A model generated the notes under the pieces. That model did no database searches, was not told where the DNA came from, and saw only the letters and a program-made list of their open reading frames with translations. From a bacterium (lineage in GTDB: Bacteria; ARS69): DNA of 25,722 nt. The translations under genes and the position numbers were made by a program. Location of the stretch: positions 1 through 25,722 of the forward strand of contig JALGZR010000050.1 of assembly GCA_025774805.1 (NCBI GenBank), in the 5' to 3' direction. The stretch's first letter is position 1. Each line of letters opens with the position of its first letter. Positions 4,347-23,600 of this stretch are shown here, piece by piece.

Positions 4347-6647
4347 TCATCCCGACGATCCGCCCTCGTCCTTCCGGTCCTTCCCCGGTTTGCCCGATCG
4401 ACTCTCGAGATCGATCCGGATGGAGTCCTGCGACTGGAGCAGGGAGTCCAGAACCGAAGCGGCCGATCGATCCGCCGGGGACGGAAGCGGCTCGTCCGCC
4501 AGGAAGGGCCGGAGCTCGCGACGGAGCGCGGGCGGGAGGATGCTCTCCATGTACTCGAGGGCGGTACCCCGCAGATAGGGATCCGACACGTGAAGCCCGC
4601 GGTACGCGAGCTCGAGGGGCTCCCGCGGGAAGACCAGCGACAGCAGGGTGAACACGTGCTCCAAGCTCCGCGTGGCGCGGTCGCGAAGCAGGTCCTCGTG
4701 GAACGGGGATCCCTCCTCTTCCGTCTCCTCGTCGAGAAGTCGCTGCGCCACCCAGACCTTTCGATCCACCCGGGTCTCGCGCTCGATCGTCCGGAAGACG
4801 CAGTCCCGGTCGATCGGGAGGTCGGGGTTTCTCTCGTGGATCCGGGAGAGGGCGATGCCCGACTGGTACCGCACCTCGAAGCGACGGTCCGCGAGGGCGT
4901 CGAGCAATCCCGACACGGCCCGGCCGGAGCGACACGCCGACATCACGCGCGGAATCCGGCGGCGAATGGCGAACTCCTCGTCGGGGTCGAGCAGGGAGTC
5001 CAGAAGCTGACCGACGTGTCGATCGCAGATCTTCCGGAGCGTTCGGATCGCGGAGGTGGCCACGCCGTCCCAGGCCAGAAGCGGGATGACGGTCGGGACG
5101 AGCTCGGAGGGCAACGAGGACGAGGTTCTCAGGGCCCGACGCACGCGGCCGAGATCTCCCGAGCGGAGCTCCACCGCTCGGGCCAGAACGGGGTCTTTGA
5201 GGGGGCCGGCCGGTTCGGTGGGGACGGTCGGGGCCGCGCCGGACGGCTCCCGGCGAACTCGTGAAGTCGATTCCGCGATCGTCGTGCTCACGTCGGCATC
5301 CAGCTCGGGAAGGGCACCGGAGAGCTCGATCTGGGAGAGGGTGTGCAGGAAGAGGGTCTGGGTCGCCTCGACATCTGCACGGGACTGCCGCTGCGTCGGC
5401 TCCGACTGCCGCTTCATGCTCCGGGCCAGCGCCGCGGCGTATCCCTCGTGCAACCGCCCGCGAAGGAGGAACCCCCCGAACCCGAGGACCGCGGCCCCGG
5501 CGACGAGAAGCTGCGTGGCGGCTCCCCCCGCGAGCAGCGCGAGGTAGACGAGACCGCCTCCCAGGGCGTCCCCCAGCCGGTCGAAGCCCACGTCGACGAG
5601 GGTCTTGACCGGACGCTTCTCGTCGCGCGGGACGGGAGCGTAGAAGAGCTCGTAACTCGAGCGGAAGATCGAGCTGCGCGTCGACGACTCCGCTCCCCGC
5701 ACCGCGGAGAAGACGGGCAATCCCGGAAAGACGAGCCCGAGGACTCCACCGACCCCCACCGTCAGGGGGAGAATCGTCGCGGCGTGGGCCGGTCGGAGCG
5801 CCTCCAGGAGCTTTCGCGTGACCGTCGACTGGACGAGGAAGGTGGCGAGCGCGATGGTCGTATAGAAAACGCCGAAGAAACGCAACAGCGTGTCCCGGTC
5901 GGTGAACGACTCCGCCGCCTCCGCCTTGAACACGAAGTCCAGGAACGCGGCGCTGACCGTTCCCATGAGGACGAGGAGGGCGAGGTGGCGCAGGTAGGGC
6001 GTCTTCCGCAGCACGCTGCCCCCCGATCGGCTCCCCGTCTCCAGGCCACCTCGCTCCGCGGTGGGGGAGGGCGCTCGGATACCCGCCCCGACGCGAGCGG
6101 CCAGCACGGCACAGACGACGTGGAGGCCGCCGAGGATCGGAAGCAGTGCGCTGAGGGAGAACAGGGCCGCGACCCGCTCCGCCACGAGCCCTCCGGCCAG
6201 ACCGCCGAGAGTGCCGCCGCCCGCGATTCGCGCGATCCGCTTTCGAGCCGTGCTCGGATCGAGCTGCTCGGTGATCATCGACCAGTACCACGAGATCAGG
6301 ACCGCTCCGAACACGGCCATGTGGATGTAGAACCCCACCGCCGCCGCTCGCGGGAACGCATCGACGGCCCACGCCCAGACGAACTGGAGTGCGGCGCTCC
6401 CCAGGAACGCGAGGGAGACGAGCCGCCGGGGTCCGAATCGGGAGAGCGCTCGCGCCGCGAGGTGGACCGCGCCGATCGTGAGGAGGGCCGACGTCACGAC
6501 CATGCGGGGAAGCTGGGAGACGTCGTAGCTCGAGAGGAAGAGCGCGTCGCGGGCCGCCTTCCCCGCGACCTGGTGGGAGATCATGGCGAACGCGCAGGCG
6601 GTGGCGGCGAGAATGGGTGCCGCGGCGCGCTCCGGAGGGCGATTCAC
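4347..6647 (-). CDS. MFS/nucleotide-transporter-like membrane protein with C-terminal HEAT-like repeats
   Basis: I choose GTG at 6647: it overlaps the TGA of the upstream kinase as GTGA, has GGAG 5 nt upstream, and the next residues (NRPPERAAAPILAATACAF) lead straight into the first TM. A start at 6737 would add an Arg/Gly-rich tail overlapping the kinase by 94 bp. 766 aa. Residues about 8-400 carry roughly 10-12 TM helices with motifs typical of the Npt1/TlcA-like MFS group: GKAARDALFLSSYDVSQLP near the N-terminus and SSYELFYAPVPRDEKRPVKT with DRLGDALGG at about 330-360. Residues about 485-710 are helical repeats (HEAT-like). In characterised relatives these carry ATP/ADP or other nucleotides; here substrate is unknown. 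Co-translation with two kinases suggests a joint signalling or energy role (inference). Confidence 0.75.
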   Translation of the reverse strand: MNRPPERAAAPILAATACAFAMISHQVAGKAARDALFLSSYDVSQLPRMVVTSALLTIGAVHLAARALSRFGPRRLVSLAFLGSAALQFVWAWAVDAFPRAAAVGFYIHMAVFGAVLISWYWSMITEQLDPSTARKRIARIAGGGTLGGLAGGLVAERVAALFSLSALLPILGGLHVVCAVLAARVGAGIRAPSPTAERGGLETGSRSGGSVLRKTPYLRHLALLVLMGTVSAAFLDFVFKAEAAESFTDRDTLLRFFGVFYTTIALATFLVQSTVTRKLLEALRPAHAATILPLTVGVGGVLGLVFPGLPVFSAVRGAESSTRSSIFRSSYELFYAPVPRDEKRPVKTLVDVGFDRLGDALGGGLVYLALLAGGAATQLLVAGAAVLGFGGFLLRGRLHEGYAAALARSMKRQSEPTQRQSRADVEATQTLFLHTLSQIELSGALPELDADVSTTIAESTSRVRREPSGAAPTVPTEPAGPLKDPVLARAVELRSGDLGRVRRALRTSSSLPSELVPTVIPLLAWDGVATSAIRTLRKICDRHVGQLLDSLLDPDEEFAIRRRIPRVMSACRSGRAVSGLLDALADRRFEVRYQSGIALSRIHERNPDLPIDRDCVFRTIERETRVDRKVWVAQRLLDEETEEEGSPFHEDLLRDRATRSLEHVFTLLSLVFPREPLELAYRGLHVSDPYLRGTALEYMESILPPALRRELRPFLADEPLPSPADRSAASVLDSLLQSQDSIRIDLESRSGKPGKDRKDEGGSSG

Positions 6648-8338
6648 GAGGTCTCCGTGGCCGGGACCGTCGCGCCCGCCTCCGCGGTCGCGGACTCGGG
6701 ACGGGAGGGGAGCAAGGTCGCGCGGTGCGTCGTCCACCAGCGTTCGGCTCTCTCCGAGCTCCAGGGCTCGACCTCGGCCTCGACGCGGGCGAGCCGCCCG
6801 GAGAGTTCGAGAGCGTCGACGGGTCGGTCGCGGGGATCCTTCGCGAGGCAGTCGAGGAGAACCCGGTCGAGGGCCGGGGGCACGTCGAGCTCCGTACGCG
6901 TCGAGACCGGCTCGGGTTCCTCACGCACGTGCTGCAGGATCATGGCCATCACGGTCTCGGCCTCGAATACGAGGCGTCCGGTCAGGAGCCAGTACCCGAC
7001 GCAGCCGAGCGCGTAGAGATCGGCGCGACCGTCGATCGTCGTTTCCCCGGTCGCCATCTCGGGGGCCATGAACGCCGGCGTTCCCTGGGTGGACCCCTCC
7101 ACGCTGAGCTGCGTTCGCGCGTCCTCTCCGTCGCCCGCCGCCTTGACCAGCCCGAAGTCGAGCACCTTGACGAAGTCGTACTCCAGCCCCTGACGGCAGG
7201 CGAACAGATTCCCCGGCTTGACGTCGCGGTGAATCATCCCGTGGCGGTGCGCGTCGGCGAGGGAGGTGCACGCCTGGCGGAGGAACCGGACCGCCCGGCC
7301 CGGCGGAACCGGTCCGGTCCTCTCCACCAGGGTGCGGAGATCGCACCCCTCCAGGAGCTCCATGACCGAGTAGAAGGCGCCCTCGTCGGTGATGCCGAAG
7401 TCGAACAGCTCCACCGTGTGGGGCGAGGTGAGGGCCGCGGTCGCCTGGGCTTCGAGCTCGAAGCGCCGGAGAAGGGCGCCTCGGGCCTGCCCGGAGCGCT
7501 CTCCCAGAGCTTCGGGGCGGATGACCTTGATCGCCGCCGGGCGGGCGAGGAGTTGGTGCTCCGCCCTCCACACGTCCCCCATGGCGCCCGAGCCGAGCTT
7601 CTCCACGAGCCGGTAACTCCCCAGACGCCGCGCCTTCGAGACCCGGCGGGTCATCGCGAAGATGGAGTGGGCCAGGGCGGTCGCGATGCCGACGCAGATC
7701 AAGATGGGGATGCTCATGACCAGCAGAATCGTGACCGTTCCCGCGACCGGCTCGGTCCCGGCGAATCGGGGGAGGCCCAGAAGCGCCACCGAGACCAGGG
7801 CCACTCCCGGCACGGTCAGCGCGCTCGCGAGCGACGTTACCAGGATTCTCCGGGGGGGGAGCGGAACGATCGCGGGGAAGGCGGTGATCCAGACGCCGAC
7901 CCAATGGACTCCTCCCAACTGCGTCCCGGCGATCTGTCGCGGATGCATGCCGTCGAAACCGGCCTGCCACCCCCAATTCCCGGCCGCGATGCCGAGCGAA
8001 GCCACGACCTGGAACAGACACGCCATCGTCTCGAACGAGCGGGCGGGCAGCCGACCCCGGAGGGACAGCATCCCGACGACGATTCCGCCGAGGATCGCGA
8101 CGACCGTCGTCAGCAGCGAGCCCGGATCCTGAAGGGGCGAGTACCCGCTCCGGCTCGCCACGGTCGTGCCGGATGCGTAGGCGATCACGTAGACGGTGGA
8201 ATAGACGAAGGCGGCGACGGCGAGCCGCCGGTACGTCTCCCGGTGCGTACGGGTGTCGAGCGCCGCGAATCCGGATCCGGGCGCCGGGCTCTCCTCCCTC
8301 CGACTGCGGGGAGGAAAAAGCGTCGGTTCCTCGGCCAT
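6644..8338 (-). CDS. Membrane Ser/Thr protein kinase, N-terminal six-TM plus C-terminal kinase domain (copy 1)
   Basis: I place the start at ATG 8338, 22 bp after the previous gene's stop, with a purine-rich GGAGGGGGTG element upstream; ATG 8410 would overlap that gene by 50 bp. 564 aa. Six hydrophobic segments lie at about 37-56, 74-93, 102-121, 144-160, 163-188 and 196-226. The kinase domain has the Gly loop GSGAMG (~249), catalytic Lys in AAIK (~271), HRDVKPGN (Asp ~372), DFG (~394) and APE (~425), all intact, so it should be active. It is PknB/Hanks type, but the kinase is C-terminal to the membrane part, the reverse of PknB. The TM domain is shared with the neighbouring kinase (GNWGW, VWITAFPAIVPLPPRR) and is probably the sensor. 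Signal and targets are unknown. Confidence 0.85.
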   Translation of the reverse strand: MAEEPTLFPPRSRREESPAPGSGFAALDTRTHRETYRRLAVAAFVYSTVYVIAYASGTTVASRSGYSPLQDPGSLLTTVVAILGGIVVGMLSLRGRLPARSFETMACLFQVVASLGIAAGNWGWQAGFDGMHPRQIAGTQLGGVHWVGVWITAFPAIVPLPPRRILVTSLASALTVPGVALVSVALLGLPRFAGTEPVAGTVTILLVMSIPILICVGIATALAHSIFAMTRRVSKARRLGSYRLVEKLGSGAMGDVWRAEHQLLARPAAIKVIRPEALGERSGQARGALLRRFELEAQATAALTSPHTVELFDFGITDEGAFYSVMELLEGCDLRTLVERTGPVPPGRAVRFLRQACTSLADAHRHGMIHRDVKPGNLFACRQGLEYDFVKVLDFGLVKAAGDGEDARTQLSVEGSTQGTPAFMAPEMATGETTIDGRADLYALGCVGYWLLTGRLVFEAETVMAMILQHVREEPEPVSTRTELDVPPALDRVLLDCLAKDPRDRPVDALELSGRLARVEAEVEPWSSERAERWWTTHRATLLPSRPESATAEAGATVPATETS

Positions 8339-8360
8339 GTCGATCGCCACCCCCTCCGGG

Positions 8361-10109
8361 TCAGATCCGGGCCCGAGTGACGGTCGCGGCGGAAACGATC
8401 GCCGCGGCATCGTCCGGCATCGTCGGCCGTTCCGGATGATGGGTATCCCACCAGCGTCTCGCCCGTTCCGCCGTCCAGGGTCCGATCTCGTCTCGGAGGC
8501 CGTGAAGACGGCGGGCGAGCTCGTGGGCGGTGTCGGGGCGATCCTCCGGACGCTTCGCGAGAAGCTCCATCACCAGGCCCTCCAGAGAGGCGGGGATCTC
8601 GATCTCCGTTCGCTTCGAGGGCGGCACCGGGGGATCCTTCGCGTGCTGCAGGAGAACGGACATCGCGTTCTCGCCCTCGAAGACGAGCTTCCCGGTCAGT
8701 AGCCAATAGGCCAGACAGCCGAGCGCGTAGAGATCCGCCCGTCCGTCGACGTCCATCTGTCCGACGGCCATCTCGGGGGCCATGAAGCCCGGCGTTCCGC
8801 TCGTGACCCCTTCCGCCGTGAGCTGCCCGCCGCCCTCGCGAGCGTGGCCGGTCTCCTTCACGAGACCGAAATCGAGCACCTTGACGAAGTCGTGGTCGAG
8901 ACCGCGCCGACAGACGAAGAGGTTGCCCGGCTTCACGTCGCGGTGGACGAGGCCCGTGGCGTGGGCGTCGGCGAGCGAGTGGGCGGCCTGCTCCAGGATG
9001 TGGACGACGCGGGACGCCGGCTGCGGGCCGTATCGCTCGACGAGCGTCTTCAGATCGATCCCGTCGAGAAGCTCCATCACGTAGTAGAACGTCCCGTCGT
9101 CCGCGACGCCGAAGTCGTAGAGCTCGACGGTGTGGGGAGAGCAGAGCCCGGCCGTGGCCTGGGCCTCCCGCTTGAAGCGCCGGATCGCCGTCCTTTCGAG
9201 CTCGCCTCTTCCTCCATCTCCTCCGCCGAGCGCTTCGGGTCGGATGAGCTTCACGGCCGCGGGCCGGACCAGCATCCGATGGCGAGCGCGCCAGACCTCC
9301 CCCATGCCTCCCTGTCCTATCTTCTCGACGAGGCGGTAGGCGCCGAGCTCCCTCTCCCGGGAGAGGTCCCGGGAGAGGTTGTAGGTCACCGCGCACCCGA
9401 CCGCGGCGATCGCCGCCACCACGTACGCGGGGATCAGGGTGGAGAAGTAGAGATACGGGACATGGGGACGGACGATCGGGGGCACGCCTTGGATCGCATG
9501 GGAAAGGAGGATCACGACGGGCAGGACCGACGTCGTGAGGAAGGCCGCGAGGATCGCCCGCCTTTGCGGCATGGGAACGACCAGCGGAAAGATCAACACC
9601 CAGACGGAGACCCAAGTGAGCGACCCTCCGGACCCCATGCCGAAGATCTGCACCCCCTGGGTTTCGATGTGCTCGAGATCGGCTCCCGAGTCGACCAGGA
9701 TCCGGAGGTACTCCGCCAGGTTCTCTCCCCATCCCCAAAACCCCCCGACGATTCCGTACGCGCCGGAGATCTCGAACACGAGCGCGGCGTTCAGGAACGA
9801 CCGGGGCGGGATTCGCTCTCCGCGCGCGAGGAAGAAGACCCCGATCGCCACCGCGATGGCCGCCGCGGTCCGCACCGTGTCCACCGTGTCGGGCGCGCAG
9901 AGGCTCCATCGCTCCCGGAAGAGAAAGGCCCAGTCCACCAGATAGAGGAGGAGATAAGTGGCCGCGTAGATCAGGGCGACCCCGGCGAGACGGCGGTAGG
10001 CGTCGGAGCGGACGTCGGGTGCGAGGCGCTCGAAGCCCGAGTCGGACGCGGAGCTTCCGGTGTCGGTTCGCAAACCCGCCGGGGCTCTGACGTCGGCCCT
10101 TTCGGTCAT
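8361..10109 (-). CDS. Membrane Ser/Thr protein kinase, N-terminal six-TM plus C-terminal kinase domain (copy 2)
   Basis: 582 aa; ATG 10109 has AAAGGA 6 nt upstream. First gene of a three-gene minus-strand operon. It has the same architecture as the next kinase and looks like its tandem duplicate: about six TM segments between residues 40 and 245, shared motifs GGFWGWGEN and VWVLIFPLVVPMPQRR, then a complete Hanks-type kinase domain with GQGGMGEV (~265), AAVK287, H389-R-D391-VKPGN, D413-FG and A-P-E446. The C-terminal tail WTAERARRWWDTHHPERP is conserved in copy 1 (WSSERAERWWTTHRATLL), so it probably has a function. The juxtamembrane LSRDLSRE is encoded by a perfect 12-bp tandem repeat (9355-9378). 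A candidate promoter with a palindrome lies just upstream. Input signal unknown. Confidence 0.87.
   Translation of the reverse strand: MTERADVRAPAGLRTDTGSSASDSGFERLAPDVRSDAYRRLAGVALIYAATYLLLYLVDWAFLFRERWSLCAPDTVDTVRTAAAIAVAIGVFFLARGERIPPRSFLNAALVFEISGAYGIVGGFWGWGENLAEYLRILVDSGADLEHIETQGVQIFGMGSGGSLTWVSVWVLIFPLVVPMPQRRAILAAFLTTSVLPVVILLSHAIQGVPPIVRPHVPYLYFSTLIPAYVVAAIAAVGCAVTYNLSRDLSRERELGAYRLVEKIGQGGMGEVWRARHRMLVRPAAVKLIRPEALGGGDGGRGELERTAIRRFKREAQATAGLCSPHTVELYDFGVADDGTFYYVMELLDGIDLKTLVERYGPQPASRVVHILEQAAHSLADAHATGLVHRDVKPGNLFVCRRGLDHDFVKVLDFGLVKETGHAREGGGQLTAEGVTSGTPGFMAPEMAVGQMDVDGRADLYALGCLAYWLLTGKLVFEGENAMSVLLQHAKDPPVPPSKRTEIEIPASLEGLVMELLAKRPEDRPDTAHELARRLHGLRDEIGPWTAERARRWWDTHHPERPTMPDDAAAIVSAATVTRARI
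9355..9378. repeat. Perfect 12-bp tandem duplication in the kinase juxtamembrane linker
   Basis: The unit TCCCGGGAGAGG occurs twice in direct succession (9355-9366, 9367-9378). On the minus strand it encodes part of LSRDLSRE between the last TM helix and the kinase domain. The other kinase copy has no such duplication (MTRRVSKARR). Confidence 0.85.
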
Positions 10110-11080: not shown

Positions 11081-12736
11081 ATGCTGCCCGACGATCTCGA
11101 GGCACTGAAGGGGATCCGTGCCGCTCTCGACGAGATCTTCCTTCTCGTGGTCGTCGGGGAGTACAACTCGGGGAAGTCGACGCTGATCAATTGTCTTCTC
11201 GGCGAGGAGCTTCTCGAGACGGGCGATCTACCCACCACGCGCGAGGTGCACCTTCTCCGTCACGGAGAGATTCGTACGACCCGCCCGGCGGACACGGGAG
11301 TCGTTCTCCACGAGCTGCCGGCGGAGCTGCTGAAAGATCTCTGCATCGTGGACACCCCGGGAACGAACTCGATGCAGCGGAAAGAGCAGGAGTTGACCCA
11401 GGGCTTCATCCCCCGCGCCGATCTGGTCCTCTTCGTCACGACGCTGATCCGTCCCTACACCGCGAGCGAGCACGACTTCCTGCGCCTGATCCGCAACTGG
11501 GGCAAGAAGATCCTCTTCGCCGTCAACCACGCCGACGTGGCTCGGGACTCGGATCAGATCGAGCGGGTCCGTTCCTATGTGCGGGAGCAAGCGGAGCTCG
11601 AGATCGGCGAAGAGCCGAAGGTTTTCTTGATCAGCGCGCGCGACGCGCTCGCCCATGGCGGCTCCGATGTCCACGGCAACGGGATCAACGAGTACTCAGC
11701 GCTCGAGCGTCACCTTCGCGACACTCTCGGCGGCCGCGACCGGGTGCGGCTCAAGCTCCGCTCTCCCCTCGACACGCTGCGCACCGTCCTGGCCCGTCAG
11801 GAGGAGGCGCTCACCGAGCGCCGGCGGCTGATCGAGGGGGACCGCACCGCCATGGAGGGAATCCTCGCCGACGTCGACGACTACGAGCGCCGACTGACCG
11901 AGGAGCTCGGTCGCTACCGGGCCCAGATCGACAACATCCTCCTCCAGATGGAGCGACGGGGGCACCGTTTCCTCGACGATCTCGTGCGTCTCGGGAACCT
12001 CTTCCGCCTGCGCAACACCGACGTCGTGGAGAACCGCTTCCGCAACGAGGTCGTGGGCGACGTCCCGTCGCGGATCGAGGAGGAGGTCCACGCGCTGATC
12101 GACTGGCTCGTTCGCGAGAATCTCGGTGCCTGGGACCGCGCGAACGCCGCGCTCGAGGGACGACGCACCGCACTGCGGGAGTCCGCGGACCGGACCCGGT
12201 TCGTCAGCCAGGAATTCGTCTACAATCGGGAGGAGATCTTCCGGAATCTGGCGGGCCCGGTGCGCCGGCACCTCGAGTCCTTCAACGCCCGCGAGGAGGC
12301 CGATCGGGTCGTCGGCGCCGTGAACGACGCGATCGCCCGCACGTTCGGAGTGGAGGCGCTCGCGCTCGGTCTCGGTGCCGTGCTGACCGCCGCCTTCACC
12401 TCGCTCACCCTCGACGTCACCGGGACCGTGGGCGGTACGCTCCTGGTGGTTGCGGGGCTGTTCCTGCTTCCACACCGCCGCGGCCGACTCAAGCGCGAGC
12501 TGACGACGAAGATCGAGACCGTGCGCGACGAGCTCTCCGACTCGATTCGTCGCTCTTTCGGAGAGGAGGTCCGCCGCTACGCGGAGCAGCTTCGAGGGGT
12601 CTTCGTTCCCGAGCGGGACGCGGCCAAAGCCCGCTCCGATTCGCTTCGGGAAGCGGGAGACCGTCTCCGGTCACTGGAGAGGCGACGCGGGGAACTGCTC
12701 GCGGCGATCGAGCGTCCGGAGGCTCCGGCGGCCTGA
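11081..12736 (+). CDS. Bacterial dynamin-like GTPase
   Basis: 551 aa from ATG 11081. G1 is GEYNSGKST (26-34), G2 Thr in LPTTRE, G3 DTPG (91-94), G4 the variant NHAD (149-152) in place of NKxD, and G5 ISARDA. After the GTPase domain come long helical coiled segments (about 220-400), then two hydrophobic stretches (about 420-465, including LALGLGAVLTAAFTSLTLDV and GGTLLVVAGLFLL) that form the membrane paddle, and a final coiled coil. These proteins bind and remodel membranes on GTP hydrolysis. The frame stays open upstream to 10985 and reads TAEERELVRRERDLLDESER just before the ATG, a helical sequence typical of this family's N-terminus, so the true start may be upstream on a CTG codon (11000 or 11042); the ATG itself lacks a good ribosome site. 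Confidence 0.85.
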   Translation: MLPDDLEALKGIRAALDEIFLLVVVGEYNSGKSTLINCLLGEELLETGDLPTTREVHLLRHGEIRTTRPADTGVVLHELPAELLKDLCIVDTPGTNSMQRKEQELTQGFIPRADLVLFVTTLIRPYTASEHDFLRLIRNWGKKILFAVNHADVARDSDQIERVRSYVREQAELEIGEEPKVFLISARDALAHGGSDVHGNGINEYSALERHLRDTLGGRDRVRLKLRSPLDTLRTVLARQEEALTERRRLIEGDRTAMEGILADVDDYERRLTEELGRYRAQIDNILLQMERRGHRFLDDLVRLGNLFRLRNTDVVENRFRNEVVGDVPSRIEEEVHALIDWLVRENLGAWDRANAALEGRRTALRESADRTRFVSQEFVYNREEIFRNLAGPVRRHLESFNAREEADRVVGAVNDAIARTFGVEALALGLGAVLTAAFTSLTLDVTGTVGGTLLVVAGLFLLPHRRGRLKRELTTKIETVRDELSDSIRRSFGEEVRRYAEQLRGVFVPERDAAKARSDSLREAGDRLRSLERRRGELLAAIERPEAPAA

Positions 12737-15734: not shown

Positions 15735-15761
15735 ATGCCCCGAGTCGCGAGGGTCGGGTGA
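15735..15761 (+). CDS. 8-codon mini-ORF overlapping the queC start
   Basis: ATG 15735 has a strong AGGAG (15724-15728) 6 nt upstream and encodes MPRVARVG, ending at TGA 15759-15761. That stop overlaps the GTG of queC (15758-15760) as GTGA. The best ribosome site in the leader belongs to this mini-ORF, so queC is probably translated by coupling (termination-reinitiation). The peptide itself may have no function. Confidence 0.5.
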
Positions 15762-16510
15762 AGCGCGCCGTCGTCCTGGTGAGCGGGGGGCTCGACTCCG
15801 CGGTCGTCCTCGCGCACGCGATCGCGGAGGGCTGGGAGGCGTACGCGCTCACCTGCGACTACGGACAGCGGCATCGGGTCGAGCTGGAGAGGGCTCGGGA
15901 GGTCGCGACGGCCCTCGGCGCCGCCGAGCATCGGATCGTGGCGGTCGACCTGGCCGCGTTCGGCGGATCGGCCCTGACGGACGACCTCGAGGTGCCGAAG
16001 GACCGGGAGGAGGGGTCGATCGGGGGCGGGATCCCCGTCACCTACGTACCGGCGCGGAACACCGTCTTCCTGTCGCTGGCCCTCGCGTGGGCGGAGACGC
16101 TCGAGGCCCGGGATCTGTTCCTCGGGGTGAACGCGCTCGACTACTCCGGATATCCCGACTGCCGGCCGGAGTTCCTCGAGGCCTTCGAGCGTCTCGCGAA
16201 CCGCGCGACCCGGCTCGGGGTGGAGTCCGGACGCACGGCGTTTCGGATCCACGCCCCGCTGATCGATCGGACGAAAGCGCAGATCGTGCGGCGGGCGCGC
16301 GAGCTGGGCGTGGATCTGTCGCGGACGCTGAGCTGCTACGATCCCCGGCCCGACGGCACGCCCTGCGGGCGTTGCGACGCATGCCTCCTGCGCGCCAGGG
16401 GATTCGCCGAGGCGGGTGTTCCCGATCCCGCCGCGGGTCGGGCCCGGCCCGCTCCCGAAACGGGGTCGGCGGGATCCGGGTCCCCCCGCGAGGAGACCGG
16501 GACGCCGTGA
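15758..16510 (+). CDS. queC: 7-cyano-7-deazaguanine (preQ0) synthase QueC
   Basis: 250 aa from GTG 15758. The ATP-PPi loop is SGGLDS (9-14), and the zinc site is C193...C203-x2-C206-x2-C209 (CYDP, then CGRCDAC). Other family signatures are [29 protein letters not shown] and [17 protein letters not shown]. QueC uses ATP and ammonia to turn 7-carboxy-7-deazaguanine into preQ0 in the cytosol. The last ~30 residues are a Pro/Gly/Ser tail beyond the usual end. It is first in queC-queE-queD-queF and overlaps queE by GTGA. Confidence 0.96.
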
Positions 16511-17151
16511 GCGCGCTCGTCGTGAACGAGATCTTCCGCTCGATCCAGGGGGAGTCCACGCGGGCCGGAGAACCGTGCGTCTTCGTCCGGCTGACGGCGT
16601 GCGACCTCCGCTGCACGTGGTGCGACACCGAGTACGCGTTCCACGAGGGAACGAAGCAGACCGTCGCCGAGGTGCTCGATCGGGTGGAGGCGTGGGACGT
16701 GCGCCTGGTGACGGTCACCGGCGGCGAGCCCCTCCTCCAGAAGAGCACGCCCGAGCTGATCACCTCCCTCCTCGACCGGGGGCGGACCGTGCTCGTGGAG
16801 ACCGGCGGCCACCGCGACATCACCGGGTTGGATTCGCGCGCGATTCGCATCCTCGACCTGAAGGCTCCGTCGTCGGGACAGACCGACCGGATGCGCTGGG
16901 GGAATCTCGACGATCTCCGCGCCACCGACGAGGTCAAGATCGTGGTCCGGGACCGGATCGACTACGATTGGGCCCTGAAGACGATCCATTCCCGAGGAAT
17001 CGAGGGCCGCTGCCCGATCCTGCTCTCGCCGGTTCACGGGGAGCTCGATCCCGCGACGCTCGCGGGGTGGATTCTGGAGTCGGGTGCGCCCGTTCGCCTC
17101 CAGATCCAACTTCACCGCCTCCTCTGGCCGGAAACGCTCCGAGGGGTTTAG
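16507..17151 (+). CDS. queE: 7-carboxy-7-deazaguanine synthase QueE (radical SAM)
   Basis: GTG 16507 overlaps the queC stop by 4 nt (GTGA), with GGAGA about 10 nt upstream. 214 aa. The radical-SAM cluster is C32-x3-C36-x2-C39 (CDLRCTWCD), the layout found in QueE. SIQGEST near the N-terminus binds substrate, and [10 protein letters not shown] is the SAM-binding GGE motif. It converts 6-carboxy-5,6,7,8-tetrahydropterin to 7-carboxy-7-deazaguanine with SAM and Mg2+. The protein ends in [13 protein letters not shown], close to the normal C-terminus of QueE. Confidence 0.95.
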
Positions 17152-17173
17152 CCTGGACTAGGAAAACGACACG

Positions 17174-17200
17174 ATGACCCTTCGACGGATGTGCCGATGA
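17174..17200 (+). CDS. 8-codon mini-ORF overlapping the queD start
   Basis: ATG 17174 encodes MTLRRMCR and stops at TGA 17198-17200, which overlaps the queD ATG (17197-17199) as ATGA. An AGGAAAA stretch lies about 10 nt before it, while queD has no clear ribosome site of its own. It has the same length and coupling geometry as the mini-ORF before queC. Could be chance. Confidence 0.35.
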   Translation: MTLRRMCR

Positions 17201-17583
17201 GAGTCGAGCTGGAGCGCACGTTTCGGTTCGAGGCCGCGCACCGGCTGCCCCACGCTCCCGAGGGGCACAAGTGTCGCCGACTGCACGGACACTCGTACCG
17301 GATCGAGGTGGCGGTCCGGGGCGAGGTCGACCCGGACGCCGGTTGGTATCTCGACTACGCCGACCTCGTCGAGGCCTTCGGGCCGATCCGGGAGCTTCTC
17401 GATCACCGCTACCTCAACGAGATCGACGGTCTGGAGAATCCCACGTCCGAACGGCTGGCGAGCTGGATCTGGGAGCGTCTCGCGCCCCGGCTCCCCGGTC
17501 TCTGGAGGATCGTCGTGCACGAGACCTGCAACGCCCGCTGCAGCTACTTCGGACCCGGAGGATTTCCGGAGGGGGAGGGTTGA
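17197..17583 (+). CDS. queD: 6-carboxy-5,6,7,8-tetrahydropterin synthase QueD
   Basis: 128 aa from ATG 17197 (GTG 17191 is an alternative). Zinc ligands are H15 (EAAHRLP), H30 and H32 (LHGHSY); the catalytic Cys is C26 in HKCRRLHGH. NPTSERLASWIW and the C-terminal VVHETCNARCSY are family signatures. QueD converts dihydroneopterin triphosphate to 6-carboxytetrahydropterin, the first committed step of the preQ0 pathway. It ends at TGA 17581-17583, sharing a base with the queF start (TGATG). Confidence 0.95.
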   Translation: MRVELERTFRFEAAHRLPHAPEGHKCRRLHGHSYRIEVAVRGEVDPDAGWYLDYADLVEAFGPIRELLDHRYLNEIDGLENPTSERLASWIWERLAPRLPGLWRIVVHETCNARCSYFGPGGFPEGEG

Positions 17584-18050
17584 TGGCGAAGAGGCGAGAG
17601 ACGGGGAAGGGGGCCGGGAGTCGAGTCGCCCGGGCGGACGCGGCCGCCCGCCGCCGGGCTCCGCGACGGGCGGCCGTGGAGACGTTTCCGAATCCGACCC
17701 CGGAGCGAGACTACGAGATCGACATCCGGACGGACGAGTGGACCGCGCTCTGCCCGATCACGGGGCAGCCCGACTTCGGGACGATCCGCATCACCTACGT
17801 TCCCGACCTGCTCTGTCTCGAGCTCAAGTCGCTGAAGCTCTACCTCCACTCGTTTCGGAACCGCGGGGTCTTCCACGAAGCGGTCACGAACGAGATCCTC
17901 GACCACCTCGTGAAGAGCTGTCGCCCGCGGCGCCTGCTCGTGGTGGGCGACTTCCGGGTGCGGGGAGGGCTCTCGACCGTGGTGACGGCCGAGTACCCGG
18001 AGCCGGGCTCCTTCTCCCGGCCGGAGCCGGAGGACGCGCGGAACGGCTGA
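17583..18050 (+). CDS. queF: NADPH-dependent 7-cyano-7-deazaguanine reductase QueF (unimodular)
   Basis: ATG 17583 is translationally coupled to queD through TGATG and has GGAGGG upstream. 155 aa, the size of the short (YkvM-like) type. C57 in ALCPITGQPDFG is the nucleophile, with D64 next to it; the QueF motif is LELKSLKLYLHSFRN, followed by VFHEAVTNEIL (His98, Glu99). It reduces preQ0 to preQ1. Residues 2-31 form an Arg/Ala/Lys-rich extension not found in typical QueF, possibly for RNA or protein contacts, or the true start is later. Last gene of the que operon; Tgt and QueA are not in the window. Confidence 0.95.
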   Translation: MAKRRETGKGAGSRVARADAAARRRAPRRAAVETFPNPTPERDYEIDIRTDEWTALCPITGQPDFGTIRITYVPDLLCLELKSLKLYLHSFRNRGVFHEAVTNEILDHLVKSCRPRRLLVVGDFRVRGGLSTVVTAEYPEPGSFSRPEPEDARNG

Positions 18051-19780: not shown

Positions 19781-19786
19781 TATAGT
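19781..19786 (+). promoter_or_regulatory. Candidate -10 box, possibly for a leaderless mRNA
   Basis: TATAGT (5/6) ends 8 bp before the ATG at 19795, and that ATG has no ribosome site. Transcription from here would start at or next to the ATG. Confidence 0.45.
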
Positions 19787-19794
19787 TGACCATC

Positions 19795-21738
19795 ATGTCA
19801 CGTACTCGCCTCCGATCCCTGCTGATCCTCGGTCTCGCCCTGACCCTGATTCCCGTCTCGGGGGCGCGGGCGCTGCGCATCGCGACGTACAACATCCTCA
19901 ATTACTCCGCGGGGCGCGAGGCTCTGTTCCGCACGGTTCTCGAGGGATTCCAGCCCGACGTGATCGTGGTGGAGGAGATCCTCTCCCAGACCGCAGTGGA
20001 CCGCTTCCGCGACCAGGTGCTCGATCAGGTGAATCCGGGCGAGTGGGAGGCGGCCTCCTTCGTGAACGGCGACGACACCGACAACGCGCTCTACTGGCGG
20101 ACGGCGAAGGTGGACACCGCGGGGCACTACGTCATCGGAACGGCGCTGCGGGACATCGACGAGTGGACGATCCGCCCGGAAGGTTTCTCCTCGTCCGCCG
20201 CGGACGTGCGCATCTACGTCGTGCACCTGAAGGCGAGCCAGGGATCCGACAACGAGACCAAGCGGCGGCTCGAGGTGCAGCAAATGCGCAACCGAATGGA
20301 GACCTTTCCGCCGGGACAGAGCTATCTCATCACGGGCGACTTCAACATCTACCGGTCCTCCGAGCCCGCCTACCAGGACATGACCAGTACGCTGCTCGGG
20401 GCCGCGGGCGTGGTTCAGGATCCCATCGACCGGGAGGGGAACTGGCACGTGAACCCGTCGTTCGCGGACATCCACACGCAGTCCCCCCGGACGGAGCTGT
20501 TCGGGGGAGGGGCGAACGGCGGCCTGGACGATCGGTTCGACATGATCCTGGTCGGACCCGCCGTGCAGGACGGGGAGGGGCTCGACATTCTCGACTCGAC
20601 GTACACCGCCCTCGGTCAGGACGGCCTTCACTTCGACGGCGCCTTGAACGTTGCACCCTTCGGGACGGTCGTCGACTCGGTGCTCCAGGTCACGCTGCAC
20701 GACGCCTCGGATCACCTGCCGGTCTTCGCCGACTTCCAGGTTCCCGCGCTTCTCGTGGCGGATGCCGCGGTCGACTTCGGCCCGGCGATCCGGGGGGGAA
20801 CGGCGACCGCGACCCTCTCGGTCGCGAACGGCTCCGCGGCCCCCGCGGACGAGCTGGACTACTCCTTCGAGGCCCCGCCCGGCTTCACGGCCCCCGCCGG
20901 GTCGTTCGAGGCGGAGCCGGGGGCGGTCGCCACCGACCACGTCCTCGGCATGGACACCGCCGTCGTCGGCGCGAAGGCGGGCGATCTCGTCGTGACGACG
21001 GACGACCCCGATCGCCCCGCGCATCCGATCCCGCTCTCCGGAAGCGTGCTCGACCACGCGGAACCGAGTGTGGACCCGGACTCCGTCGTTCTCGCCACCT
21101 CGCTCGATCTCGGGTACGTTGCCGAGGGCGACACCGCCGAGACCGTCGCGACCGTTCACAACTTCGGCTACGGGCCCCTTCAAGCCCTCCTCGATGTGCA
21201 CGACGCGGTCCTCGCCGGGGATCCACGCTTTCACCTCATCGGGGGGTTCACCCCGGCCCTCGTGGGCGGCTCCCCCGTCGCGTGGTCCGTCGGCTTCGAC
21301 GCGGCGGGCGCCGCCAGCGGTTCCTACGAGGGAACCCTCACGTTCTCCACGCGGGACCAGACCGACCTGTCGGGGGCGATTCCCCTCGCCGACCTCACGT
21401 TCGACCTGACCGCCGCCGTCCAGGGAGGCGGCGTCGCGGTTCTCACCGAGCCGTCCCGGCCCGATCGCACCGGCCTCGCGTCGATTGCTCCCAATCCTTT
21501 CCGTCCCTCGACCGACATCCACTTCGAGCTTCGCGATCCCGCCCACGTCCGGCTGGACGTCTACGACGTCCGGGGGCGCCGAATCACGACCCTCGTCGAC
21601 GGGGCGCGTCCGACCGGCGTGCAACGGATGACTTGGGACGGGCGGAGCGCCGGACTGGCCGTGCCGCCGGGCATCTACTTCGTGCGGTTGCAGGCGGGCG
21701 GGGTGGTCGAGACCCGCAAGATCACCCGACTTCGCTGA
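19795..21738 (+). CDS. Secreted endonuclease/exonuclease/phosphatase-family protein with C-terminal sorting domain
   Basis: 647 aa. Signal peptide at about 6-26 (LLILGLALTLIPVSGARA). The DNase I-like (EEP) fold is shown by N33 (TYNILNY), E60/E61 (VVEEIL), the GDFN motif (D182, N184) and SDH (D306, H307), so the catalytic and metal residues are intact. Residues about 320-560 are beta-sandwich domains of the ASH/choice-of-anchor type (two Ig-like units). The last ~85 residues are a FlgD-like/T9SS-type domain (APNPFRPSTDIHFEL, VYDVRGRRITTLVD, GIYFVRLQAGG). It probably cuts DNA/RNA or a phosphodiester outside the cell; substrate unknown. Single-gene unit. Confidence 0.85.
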   Translation: MSRTRLRSLLILGLALTLIPVSGARALRIATYNILNYSAGREALFRTVLEGFQPDVIVVEEILSQTAVDRFRDQVLDQVNPGEWEAASFVNGDDTDNALYWRTAKVDTAGHYVIGTALRDIDEWTIRPEGFSSSAADVRIYVVHLKASQGSDNETKRRLEVQQMRNRMETFPPGQSYLITGDFNIYRSSEPAYQDMTSTLLGAAGVVQDPIDREGNWHVNPSFADIHTQSPRTELFGGGANGGLDDRFDMILVGPAVQDGEGLDILDSTYTALGQDGLHFDGALNVAPFGTVVDSVLQVTLHDASDHLPVFADFQVPALLVADAAVDFGPAIRGGTATATLSVANGSAAPADELDYSFEAPPGFTAPAGSFEAEPGAVATDHVLGMDTAVVGAKAGDLVVTTDDPDRPAHPIPLSGSVLDHAEPSVDPDSVVLATSLDLGYVAEGDTAETVATVHNFGYGPLQALLDVHDAVLAGDPRFHLIGGFTPALVGGSPVAWSVGFDAAGAASGSYEGTLTFSTRDQTDLSGAIPLADLTFDLTAAVQGGGVAVLTEPSRPDRTGLASIAPNPFRPSTDIHFELRDPAHVRLDVYDVRGRRITTLVDGARPTGVQRMTWDGRSAGLAVPPGIYFVRLQAGGVVETRKITRLR

Positions 21739-21786: not shown

Positions 21787-23010
21787 TCAGGTCTTGGCGA
21801 CCAGGCTCGCCAAAAGCTCGGCGTTGGATCGGTAGCGGGAGAGGAGCTCGAGGAGGAAGGTCATCGCCTCGTGCGGCTTCATCGCGGTCATGTGCCGACG
21901 GAGAAGATGGACCCGCGCGAGGTCCTCCGCCGAGGTGAGCTTCTCCTCCTTGCGGGTGCCCGACTTCTCGATGTCGACACAGGGAAAGATCCGCTTCGTG
22001 AAGAGGTCGCGGGAGAGGAAGAGCTCCATGTTTCCCGTTCCCTTGAACTCCTGAAAGATGACCTCGTCCATGCGGGACCCCGTATCGATGAGGGAGGTCC
22101 CCACGATGGTGAGGCTGCCACCGTCCTCGATCTTTCGGGCCGAGCCGAAGATCTGCCGCGGAACGAGCATCGTGGTCGCGTCGAGGCCGCCCGACAGCGT
22201 CCGCCCCCCCGAGTCCACCATCGTGTTGTAGGCCCGGGCCAGCCGCGTGATGGAGTCGAGCAGGAGCACGACGTCCTCTCCCTGGAGAACGTGCTCCAGC
22301 GCCTGGTTCACGCAGCTCTCGGCGACCTGGATGTGCTCCGCCGCCGACATGTCGCTCGAGGCCGCGTGAACGTCGGCCTCGGTGCTGCGCCGGAAGTGTG
22401 TCACCTCCTCGGGACGCTCATCGACGAGAAGGACGAACTTGCGGATCTCGGGATGGTTGGCCGTGAGCCCGTTCGCGATCTTGATCAGGAGAGTCGTCTT
22501 GCCCGCCATGGGAGGGGCGACGACGAGGCAGCGCTGCCCGCGGCCGATCGGGGTGATCAGATCGAGTACCCGGGTGGTGACCTCATCCGCCGTCGTCTCG
22601 AGGGTGAGCGGCTCGAACGGGTCGATGCTGATTCCCTGCTGGATTATCTTGAGGGCCGGGATCTCACCGATCGGTATCCGGGGTCGACGTCCCACGGAGC
22701 GACCGCCGCCCGGACGGGAACCGCGGCCGCGCCGTGCATCCCGCCCACCACCGTTCCGACCGCCCCCGTTTCCCGCCCGCGTGTTTCCCGGGCTTCGGCT
22801 CTCGCGGGCGGGATCGTAGCCGCTGTCCACCCGGTTGCGAGGGCCACGGTTCGTTTTCCGACCTCGGGGATTCCCTCGTCCCGATCCGCCGCCCTTGGAG
22901 TTGCCGGACGAGGACCGCGGGTTCTTTCTTCGAGGAGATTTGGTGCCATCGGAGGAACCGGGTCCCGTCGACCGCTTGCGAGGCCGCGGACGACGGGAGC
23001 GTAAGTTCAT
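21787..23010 (-). CDS. rho: Transcription termination factor Rho, lacking the RNA-binding OB fold
   Basis: 407 aa from ATG 23010; a TTG at 23025 with GGAG 5 nt upstream is an alternative start. The ATPase core is clearly Rho: LITPIGRGQRCLVVAPPMAG, then KTTLL (Walker A, residues 165-172), LVDERPEEVTHFRR, LLLDSITRLARAYNT (Walker B), EFKGTGNMEL and SGTRKEE. But residues 2-109 are an Arg/Gly/Ser/Asn-rich low-complexity region, and the usual Rho_N and cold-shock-like OB domains (primary RNA site) are absent. The first Lys of PPKAGKT is Met here, and the Q-loop Lys region reads DATTMLVPRQIFG. It should still be a ring ATPase. The basic tail may replace the OB fold for RNA binding. Confidence 0.92.
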   Translation of the reverse strand: MNLRSRRPRPRKRSTGPGSSDGTKSPRRKNPRSSSGNSKGGGSGRGNPRGRKTNRGPRNRVDSGYDPARESRSPGNTRAGNGGGRNGGGRDARRGRGSRPGGGRSVGRRPRIPIGEIPALKIIQQGISIDPFEPLTLETTADEVTTRVLDLITPIGRGQRCLVVAPPMAGKTTLLIKIANGLTANHPEIRKFVLLVDERPEEVTHFRRSTEADVHAASSDMSAAEHIQVAESCVNQALEHVLQGEDVVLLLDSITRLARAYNTMVDSGGRTLSGGLDATTMLVPRQIFGSARKIEDGGSLTIVGTSLIDTGSRMDEVIFQEFKGTGNMELFLSRDLFTKRIFPCVDIEKSGTRKEEKLTSAEDLARVHLLRRHMTAMKPHEAMTFLLELLSRYRSNAELLASLVAKT

Positions 23011-23600
23011 GGGGGATGAGTTCAAGGGATCTCCACAGCGGCCGACCGCCGCCGGACCGCCAGGGTTGAAGGACGTCGGGCCTGCCGCCCGCTCTTGACC
23101 ACGCGGGGTCGTGTCACCGTTCGACCGAATCTCCCGAGGGCGAGATCGCCGCTCCGGACGGGGATCGCTGTCGGGCCCGAGCGGCCCGTACGGCGTTTCG
23201 ACGCGAGACACTCCACTCCCACCCTCGGGACGTCCCGTCGTGGGAGGAGCGATCGGTGCCGGCGCGCAGCGCGCTTCTCCTCGGGGCCACCCATCGACCC
23301 TTCGCGCCGCGTCTGGATGAGATGACGATCGGGGCGGGGCCTTCAACAGGTTACGAGACCGGAACCGGCGACGCCGATCAGGGCGTCACGGTCTTCCGGG
23401 GCCCGGCGGCGACGATCCTCCGCCGCGGTGGCAGCGCGCGGCGCGAGGAGCGGCGACGGCCGGACGACTCTGGCCCCGAACACTTCGACTTCCGTGGAAG
23501 AGGATACCCTCTTCCTATCCGGATTTCACCTCGAATCTCGGCCCCGTGTCTACACCAACTTCACGAGGAGATCAAGGCCGGAGTCCCGATCGTGAAGCCC
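23011..23600. other. 590-bp gap between rho and the beta-helix gene
   Basis: The rho frame stays open upstream to 23346, but its translation is Pro/Arg/Gly/Ser-rich with no domain and a less gene-like codon pattern, so I read it as the rho leader, not protein. No tRNA or known riboswitch is seen. It holds one perfect hairpin at 23496-23515. The region would contain the rho promoter and any autoregulatory leader, but I cannot point to a clear promoter. Confidence 0.55.
23496..23515. repeat. Perfect 8-bp hairpin with 4-nt loop in the rho upstream gap
   Basis: GGAAGAGG (23496-23503), ATAC, CCTCTTCC (23508-23515). It lies 86 bp after the beta-helix gene's stop and may be its terminator, although no U-run follows. 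As it is symmetric it may also be a protein-binding site. Confidence 0.55.

What the first reader, a model, noticed from the sequence alone, without database searches (positions are those of the whole stretch)
21787..23025. Rho with the OB fold replaced by an Arg/Gly/Asn-rich region and with altered Walker A
The first ~110 residues lack Rho_N and the cold-shock-like RNA-binding domain found in nearly all Rho proteins, and are instead low-complexity RG/RS/GN-rich. The P-loop is APPMAGKT, where the first Lys of the usual PPKAGKT is Met, and the Q-loop differs (TTMLVPRQ). This may be a Rho that recruits RNA through a disordered, possibly phase-separating tail, or a second specialised Rho.
Basis: partly seen in the sequence, partly recalled or inferred. 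Interest (0 to 1): 0.65.

Follow-up and report, generated by a model that had tools for sequence, protein, structure and literature searches.

The report
Second Rho without its RNA-binding domain
Some little-known bacteria carry, besides their normal Rho (the motor that stops RNA synthesis), an ancient second Rho that has lost its RNA-gripping domain and bears a floppy, positively charged arginine/glycine-rich tail instead, so it probably catches RNA in a different way.

Summary
The minus-strand gene at 21787-23025 (412 aa, TTG start conserved in four genera) is a Rho ATPase motor whose first ~116 residues are Arg/Gly/Ser/Asn-rich. No OB domain is found there by Pfam, by a custom OB profile in six frames, or by AlphaFold2, whereas a control relative folds a clear OB barrel. 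It is a second Rho: the genome also has one ordinary Rho with Rho_N and OB. The OB-less form is no artefact. It occurs in 4 of 5 genomes of the window's phylum, 20 of 39 sampled Eiseniibacteriota and 4 of 38 sampled Krumholzibacteriota, and forms one well-supported clade outside all canonical Rhos sampled. Catalytic lysine, catalytic glutamate, arginine finger and R-loop are kept. The 'altered Walker A' is minor: Met at the E. coli K181 position, only in the window's own family. 'TTMLVPRQ' lies just behind the Q-loop, not in it; the real Q-loop change is P279 to Asp/Gly/Glu. Best reading: an ancient short-Rho paralogue that lost the C-specific primary RNA site and probably tethers RNA through six basic disordered tails. 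RNA binding, termination and condensation are inferred. New variant of a known kind.

The parts
21787..23025 (-). OB-less second Rho (rho2), 412 aa from TTG at 23025, stop at 21787-21789
   Evidence: TTG start conserved in four genera; NCBIfam PRK09376 Rho 1.8e-115
23030..23034 (-). probable Shine-Dalgarno GGAGA, just before the TTG
   Evidence: read; purine-rich stretch also before the TTG in L002, L003, L093
22663..23025 (-). disordered Arg/Gly/Ser/Asn-rich N-terminal tail in place of Rho_N and the OB domain
   Evidence: AF2 residues 1-116 pLDDT about 50, no secondary structure; composition; no OB
22639..22659 (-). short helix (residues 118-124) just before the motor, similar in many OB-less relatives
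   Evidence: AF2; aligned relatives
21790..22662 (-). Rho ATPase/translocase core
   Evidence: PF00006; VIA-align Z about 42 to solved Rho structures; catalytic residues kept
22495..22518 (-). Walker A / P-loop APPMAGKT; Met at the E. coli K181 position, K184 and T185 kept
   Evidence: Met in 4 of 4 sequences of the family, K in the other OB-less forms of that alignment
22180..22218 (-). Q-loop (E. coli 278-290 equivalent): P279 is Asp, K283 is Arg
   Evidence: Q-loop limits from PMC1950744
22072..22086 (-). R-loop DTGSR, conserved

Best explanation
This is an ancient second Rho paralogue, kept beside the ordinary Rho. [quoted passage not shown] Shown here: second copy; OB absent; tail predicted disordered and strongly basic; motor residues conserved and under purifying selection; one monophyletic OB-less clade in three bacterial phyla, outside all canonical Rhos sampled. 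Inferred: it forms a hexamer that hydrolyses ATP and threads RNA through the central channel, using the R-loop and a modified Q-loop. It is loaded on RNA not by C-rich rut sites but by six basic tails (about +27 each) binding RNA with low sequence specificity, perhaps helped by NusG. It thus acts as a second termination or RNP-remodelling motor with a different substrate choice from Rho. Condensate formation is possible but untested.
For: Canonical Rho (Rho_N + OB + core) elsewhere in the genome, exactly two Rhos. OB absent by Pfam, custom HMM, six-frame search and AF2, with a positive control: OB+ short Rho L178, folded with largely the same relatives, shows a beta barrel at residues 8-75, pLDDT above 95. 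OB-less second Rho in 4 of 5 genomes of the phylum, 20 of 39 Eiseniibacteriota, 4 of 38 Krumholzibacteriota. Clade support 100/99. E. coli K184, T185, E211, R212, D265, R353, R366 and R-loop T323 to K/R326 kept. Core dN/dS about 0.06-0.12; tail dN below dS in all six pairs. Arg-rich tail and decayed primary-site residues already present in OB+ short Rhos of Acidobacteriota, a plausible intermediate. Precedents: Arg/Asp/Asn/Gly-rich N-terminal subdomain of M. tuberculosis Rho binds RNA alone (PMC4167861); E. coli survives compromised rut recognition through NusG (PMC4150792).
Against: No biochemical data; RNA binding by the tail and termination activity are not shown. Pro279, whose change to Ser or Leu abolishes termination in E. 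coli (PMC1950744), is Asp/Gly/Glu here, and E333 is Gln in all short Rhos, so the ring may not work as a standard terminator. The tail aligns poorly and evolves fast.
Confidence: 0.6

Rival explanations
1. It is an RNA or RNA:DNA-hybrid remodelling helicase (RNP, R-loop or condensate motor) that no longer terminates transcription.
For: Loss of rut-recognising OB; substitutions at positions fixed in canonical Rho, such as P279 and E333; basic disordered tail; P279 mutants of E. coli Rho lose termination (PMC1950744).
Against: R-loop, catalytic residues and arginine finger of a Rho translocase kept; no partner gene suggests another role.
Confidence: 0.2
2. It is a subunit or regulator that joins canonical Rho in mixed rings and tunes them with its tail.
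For: Both Rhos co-occur in all 21 genomes examined; core about 51-54% identical to the canonical Rho of the same family.
Against: Interfaces were not modelled as a complex; many conserved core positions differ between the two Rhos.
Confidence: 0.12
3. The tail is a protein- or DNA-docking segment (for example to RNA polymerase, ribosome or nucleoid) rather than an RNA tether.
For: Short N-terminal motif conserved in Eiseniibacteriota (MRxRRRRPRGPRP), which could be a docking motif; E. coli Rho primary site can bind dsDNA (PMC12133298, abstract).
Against: Over most of the tail composition, not sequence, is conserved, which fits RNA or polyanion binding.
Confidence: 0.1
4. A decaying gene, assembly chimera or misread frame.
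For: Draft genome in 284 contigs; contamination estimate 5.06%.
Against: Same protein in four genera of the family with the same neighbours, clade in three phyla, strong purifying selection on the core, no stop or frameshift.
Confidence: 0.01

Closest known systems
Canonical transcription termination factor Rho (E. coli Rho; NCBIfam PRK09376, TIGR00767)
   Same: ATPase core, P-loop Lys, catalytic Glu, Arg finger, R-loop; AF2 core aligns with solved Rho at Z about 42, rmsd about 1.4
   Different: No Rho_N, no OB primary site; basic disordered tail; Q-loop P279 and many other canonical-invariant positions changed; separate clade
NCBIfam NF041509 paralog_Rho2, 'transcription termination factor Rho, short form'
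   Same: Second, short Rho lacking Rho_N; shares residues with other short Rhos at canonical-diagnostic positions (for example E333Q, K283R in most)
   Different: That model spans an OB region before position about 84; the window protein matches only 84-360 and scores 334 against a cut-off of 628
Rho with a disordered insertion (B. thetaiotaomicron, M. tuberculosis and other Actinobacteria)
   Same: Long, compositionally biased, charged disordered N-terminal region; in M. tuberculosis Arg/Asp/Asn/Gly-rich and RNA-binding (PMC4167861)
   Different: There the disordered part is added beside a retained OB in the housekeeping Rho; here it replaces the OB in a second Rho
Short OB-containing Rhos of Acidobacteriota, Planctomycetota, Eiseniibacteriota, Krumholzibacteriota (this work)
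   Same: Second Rho beside canonical Rho, no Rho_N; Acidobacteriota forms have an Arg-rich tail
   Different: OB still present, with decayed primary-site residues

Membership tests
Rho termination factor (NCBIfam NF006886 / TIGR00767) | Rho-type ATPase core with P-loop Lys, catalytic Glu, Arg finger, R-loop | tested here: met
   NF006886 386 bits over cut-off 315; residues kept; fold Z about 42
Rho termination factor (NCBIfam NF006886 / TIGR00767) | N-terminal OB/cold-shock RNA-binding domain (PF07497) | tested here: not met
   positive controls
Rho termination factor (NCBIfam NF006886 / TIGR00767) | full-length equivalog score of TIGR00767 (cut-off 509) | tested here: not met
   372 bits, core only
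Rho termination factor (NCBIfam NF006886 / TIGR00767) | RNA-dependent ATPase and transcription termination activity | not testable with these tools
   needs purified protein
NF041509 paralog_Rho2 (short form) | Second short Rho beside a canonical Rho | tested here: met
NF041509 paralog_Rho2 (short form) | Whole-length match over the curated cut-off (628 bits), including the OB part | tested here: not met
   333.9 bits, profile 84-360 only; no genome of the two sampled phyla exceeds the cut-off
Phase-separating IDR Rho (BtRho type) | Disordered charged region | tested here: met
   AF2; composition
Phase-separating IDR Rho (BtRho type) | IDR inserted between Rho_N and a retained OB domain | tested here: not met
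   no Rho_N or OB
Phase-separating IDR Rho (BtRho type) | Condensation with RNA | not testable with these tools
   experiment needed
FliI/T3SS ATPase | score of FliI/SctN equivalogs | tested here: not met
   about 80 bits or less against cut-offs of about 380-750

The most novel reading that the evidence does not exclude
A Rho-family motor that loads onto RNA solely through disordered Arg/Gly tails, without any folded primary RNA-binding domain, and does a job separate from canonical Rho (for example acting on non-C-rich or condensate-held RNA). The evolutionary path can be read from living intermediates: Rho_N lost, Arg-rich tail gained, OB decayed, OB lost.
Probability: 0.4. Interest if true: 0.75.

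Novelty: new variant of a known kind. Interest (0 to 1): 0.62.

Why it matters
The OB primary site is taught as the part with which Rho recognises RNA. A whole clade of second Rhos that has lost it while keeping the motor gives a natural test of whether the OB is needed to load the ring. It is also a clear case of a folded RNA-binding domain being exchanged for a disordered basic tail, with possible intermediates still alive. It opens a genetic question in poorly studied phyla: what the second Rho terminates or remodels.

Tried and rejected
Frameshifted or upstream OB: six-frame search with a custom OB profile found none. Assembly chimera or contamination: rejected because four genera of the family share gene, neighbours and TTG start. 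Tail as meaningless GC-rich translation: frame-shifted readings of the same DNA give 21-39 hydrophobic residues per 110 against 12 in frame, and the composition repeats in the OB-less relatives. Operon or partner gene: the gene lies alone, between a beta-helix protein and a convergent endonuclease-like protein in the own family, with no shared neighbours in the other phyla. Promoter and terminator scan: nothing. A NusG paralogue as dedicated partner: only one NusG domain in the genome. Structure search against viral proteins: only generic RecA/DnaB-like matches. L068 (Lujinxingiaceae) also lacks the OB but sits on a very long branch and was left out of the later trees; with it the OB-less rows need two changes and hold together in only 21% of bootstrap trees. 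L203 was auto-labelled OB+ at E = 0.12 (5.8 bits); its tail is Gly/Arg-rich, it lies inside the OB-less clade and I count it as OB-less. Whole-phylum searches with the protein query failed on the server. Literature searches found no description of an OB-less Rho; the key survey by D'Heygere et al. 2013 was not among the papers returned and I did not read it, so prior mention cannot be excluded.

Full report
Observation. The minus-strand ORF 21787-23025 encodes a 412-residue protein. A TTG at 23023-23025, preceded by GGAGA, is the likely start: TTG stands at the same place in the three other genera of the family. Pfam finds only the ATPase domain above its cut-off, no Rho_N and no Rho_RNA_bind. 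NCBIfam finds Rho over residues 130-402 (PRK09376, 386 bits over its cut-off of 315) but not at full length (TIGR00767, 372 against 509).

The OB domain is really missing. PF07497 occurs once in the genome, on another contig, in a Rho with Rho_N, OB and core. I built an OB profile from short Rhos of Acidobacteriota and Planctomycetota. It finds the OB in every canonical Rho tested, E. coli included (E <= 1e-16), but gives no significant score for the window protein or its nearest kin, and nothing in six frames of the window or of the other OB-less loci. AlphaFold2 with 48 sequences gives residues 1-116 no secondary structure at pLDDT about 50 and the core above 90. As a control, an OB-containing short Rho (L178), folded with largely the same relatives, shows a beta barrel at residues 8-75 with pLDDT above 95. 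The core aligns with solved Rho structures at Z about 42, rmsd about 1.4 A.

The tail. It is 23% Arg, 22% Gly, 14% Ser, 8% Asn, with net charge per residue +0.22 over 124 residues, about +27 per chain. Other reading frames of the same DNA are far more hydrophobic, so this is not just GC-rich translation. The tails of the other OB-less relatives share the composition (15-26% Arg, mostly Gly-rich), and in Eiseniibacteriota many have a near-fixed start MRxRRRRPRGPRP. Between genera of the family dN is below dS in the tail in all six pairs (ratio about 0.36-0.9, on an imperfect alignment), against about 0.06-0.12 in the core.

Motor residues. E. coli K184, T185, D210, E211, R212, D265, S266, R353 and R366, and R-loop T323 to K/R326, are kept. 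The 'altered Walker A' is Met at the K181 position; canonical Rhos have R or K there, and Met occurs only in the window's family (4 of 4). 'TTMLVPRQ' is E. coli 292-299, just after the Q-loop. In the Q-loop itself P279, invariant in 28 canonical Rhos, is Asp here, Asp, Gly or Glu in the OB-less group, and mostly Lys, Arg or Gly in other short Rhos; K283 is Arg. E333 is Gln in all short Rhos examined. P279S or P279L abolish termination in E. coli (PMC1950744), so the ring may have been retuned.

Distribution and tree. The genome has exactly two Rhos. Of five genomes of this phylum, four have the OB-less form beside canonical Rho; the fifth is 67% complete. In 21 genomes reached through relatives all have a canonical Rho, and a second Rho. 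In Eiseniibacteriota, 20 of 39 sampled genomes carry an OB-less second Rho and 8 an OB-containing short one; none was seen with both; in two (G048, G057) no canonical Rho was seen, perhaps for incompleteness. In Krumholzibacteriota 4 of 38 carry the OB-less form and about 16 the OB-containing short form. On trees of the core alone, canonical Rhos form one clade (100/99). The OB-less proteins of the window's phylum, Eiseniibacteriota and Krumholzibacteriota form another (100/99, L203 counted as OB-less from its sequence), outside the canonical clade. In one search the grouping within the OB-less clade matches that of the canonical Rhos of the same genomes, which fits old vertical descent. Exactly which OB-containing short Rho is the sister group is not settled.

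How the OB was probably lost. Short Rhos of Acidobacteriota lack Rho_N, have an Arg-rich tail and keep an OB in which the primary-site residues have decayed: at F62 the commonest residues are Lys, Thr, Gln and Ser, R66 is mostly Val, Y80 mostly Ile or Leu, Y110 mostly Pro; those of Planctomycetota keep more of them. This suggests the series: Rho_N lost, basic tail gained, OB decayed, OB lost. It is inference from living forms; the tree does not fix the order.

Mechanism. Most likely a ring-shaped ATP-driven RNA translocase loaded through low-specificity binding of RNA by six basic tails rather than by C-rich rut sites. Precedents: the Arg/Asp/Asn/Gly-rich N-terminal subdomain of M. tuberculosis Rho binds RNA by itself (PMC4167861); E. 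coli tolerates compromised rut recognition at most terminators when NusG helps (PMC4150792); the disordered region of B. thetaiotaomicron Rho condenses with RNA (PMC13269538; PMC10284900). Termination, RNA binding and condensation by the present protein are inferred, not shown. The genome has a single NusG domain, so no dedicated NusG paralogue was found.

What is new. A short second Rho is already named in NCBIfam (NF041509), and disordered regions in Rho are known. What I did not find described is a Rho without any OB domain, its spread over three phyla, and the exchange of the OB for a disordered tail. Absence in the open-access library does not prove it is undescribed.

Noticed in passing
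window 15758-18047, + strand: Queuosine biosynthesis cluster: QueC (15758-16507) and QueF (17583-18047) by Pfam, with QueE-like and QueD-like ORFs between them by eye.
   Followed up: partly
window 11081-12733, + strand: Bacterial dynamin-like GTPase (Dynamin_N, 1e-21).
   Followed up: partly
window 4350-6737, - strand: Membrane protein resembling the TLC ATP/ADP transporters, with weak HEAT-repeat similarity behind it.
   Followed up: partly
window 6644-10109, - strand: Two adjacent, similar membrane-anchored serine/threonine protein kinases (read from the ORF translations, not scanned).
   Followed up: no
window 19786-21735 and 1800-4301, + strand: Two secreted-looking proteins ending in a FlgD-Ig-like C-terminal domain; the first also has an endonuclease/exonuclease/phosphatase domain and is the conserved convergent neighbour of rho2.
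   Followed up: partly
L175-L181, L186, L204-L213: A separate clade of short, OB-containing second Rhos without Rho_N and mostly without a tail in Eiseniibacteriota and Krumholzibacteriota; in Eiseniibacteriota never seen in the same genome as the OB-less form.
   Followed up: yes
L068:4070-5011: Lujinxingiaceae genome: a very short second Rho (314 residues) with only about 36 residues before the core and no OB, on a long branch; possibly an independent OB loss.
   Followed up: partly
G077:C190:17773-18555: This Krumholzibacteriota genome has two Rho matches and both align only over the core (profile 99-359 and 79-359); whether it has a canonical Rho was not checked.
   Followed up: no
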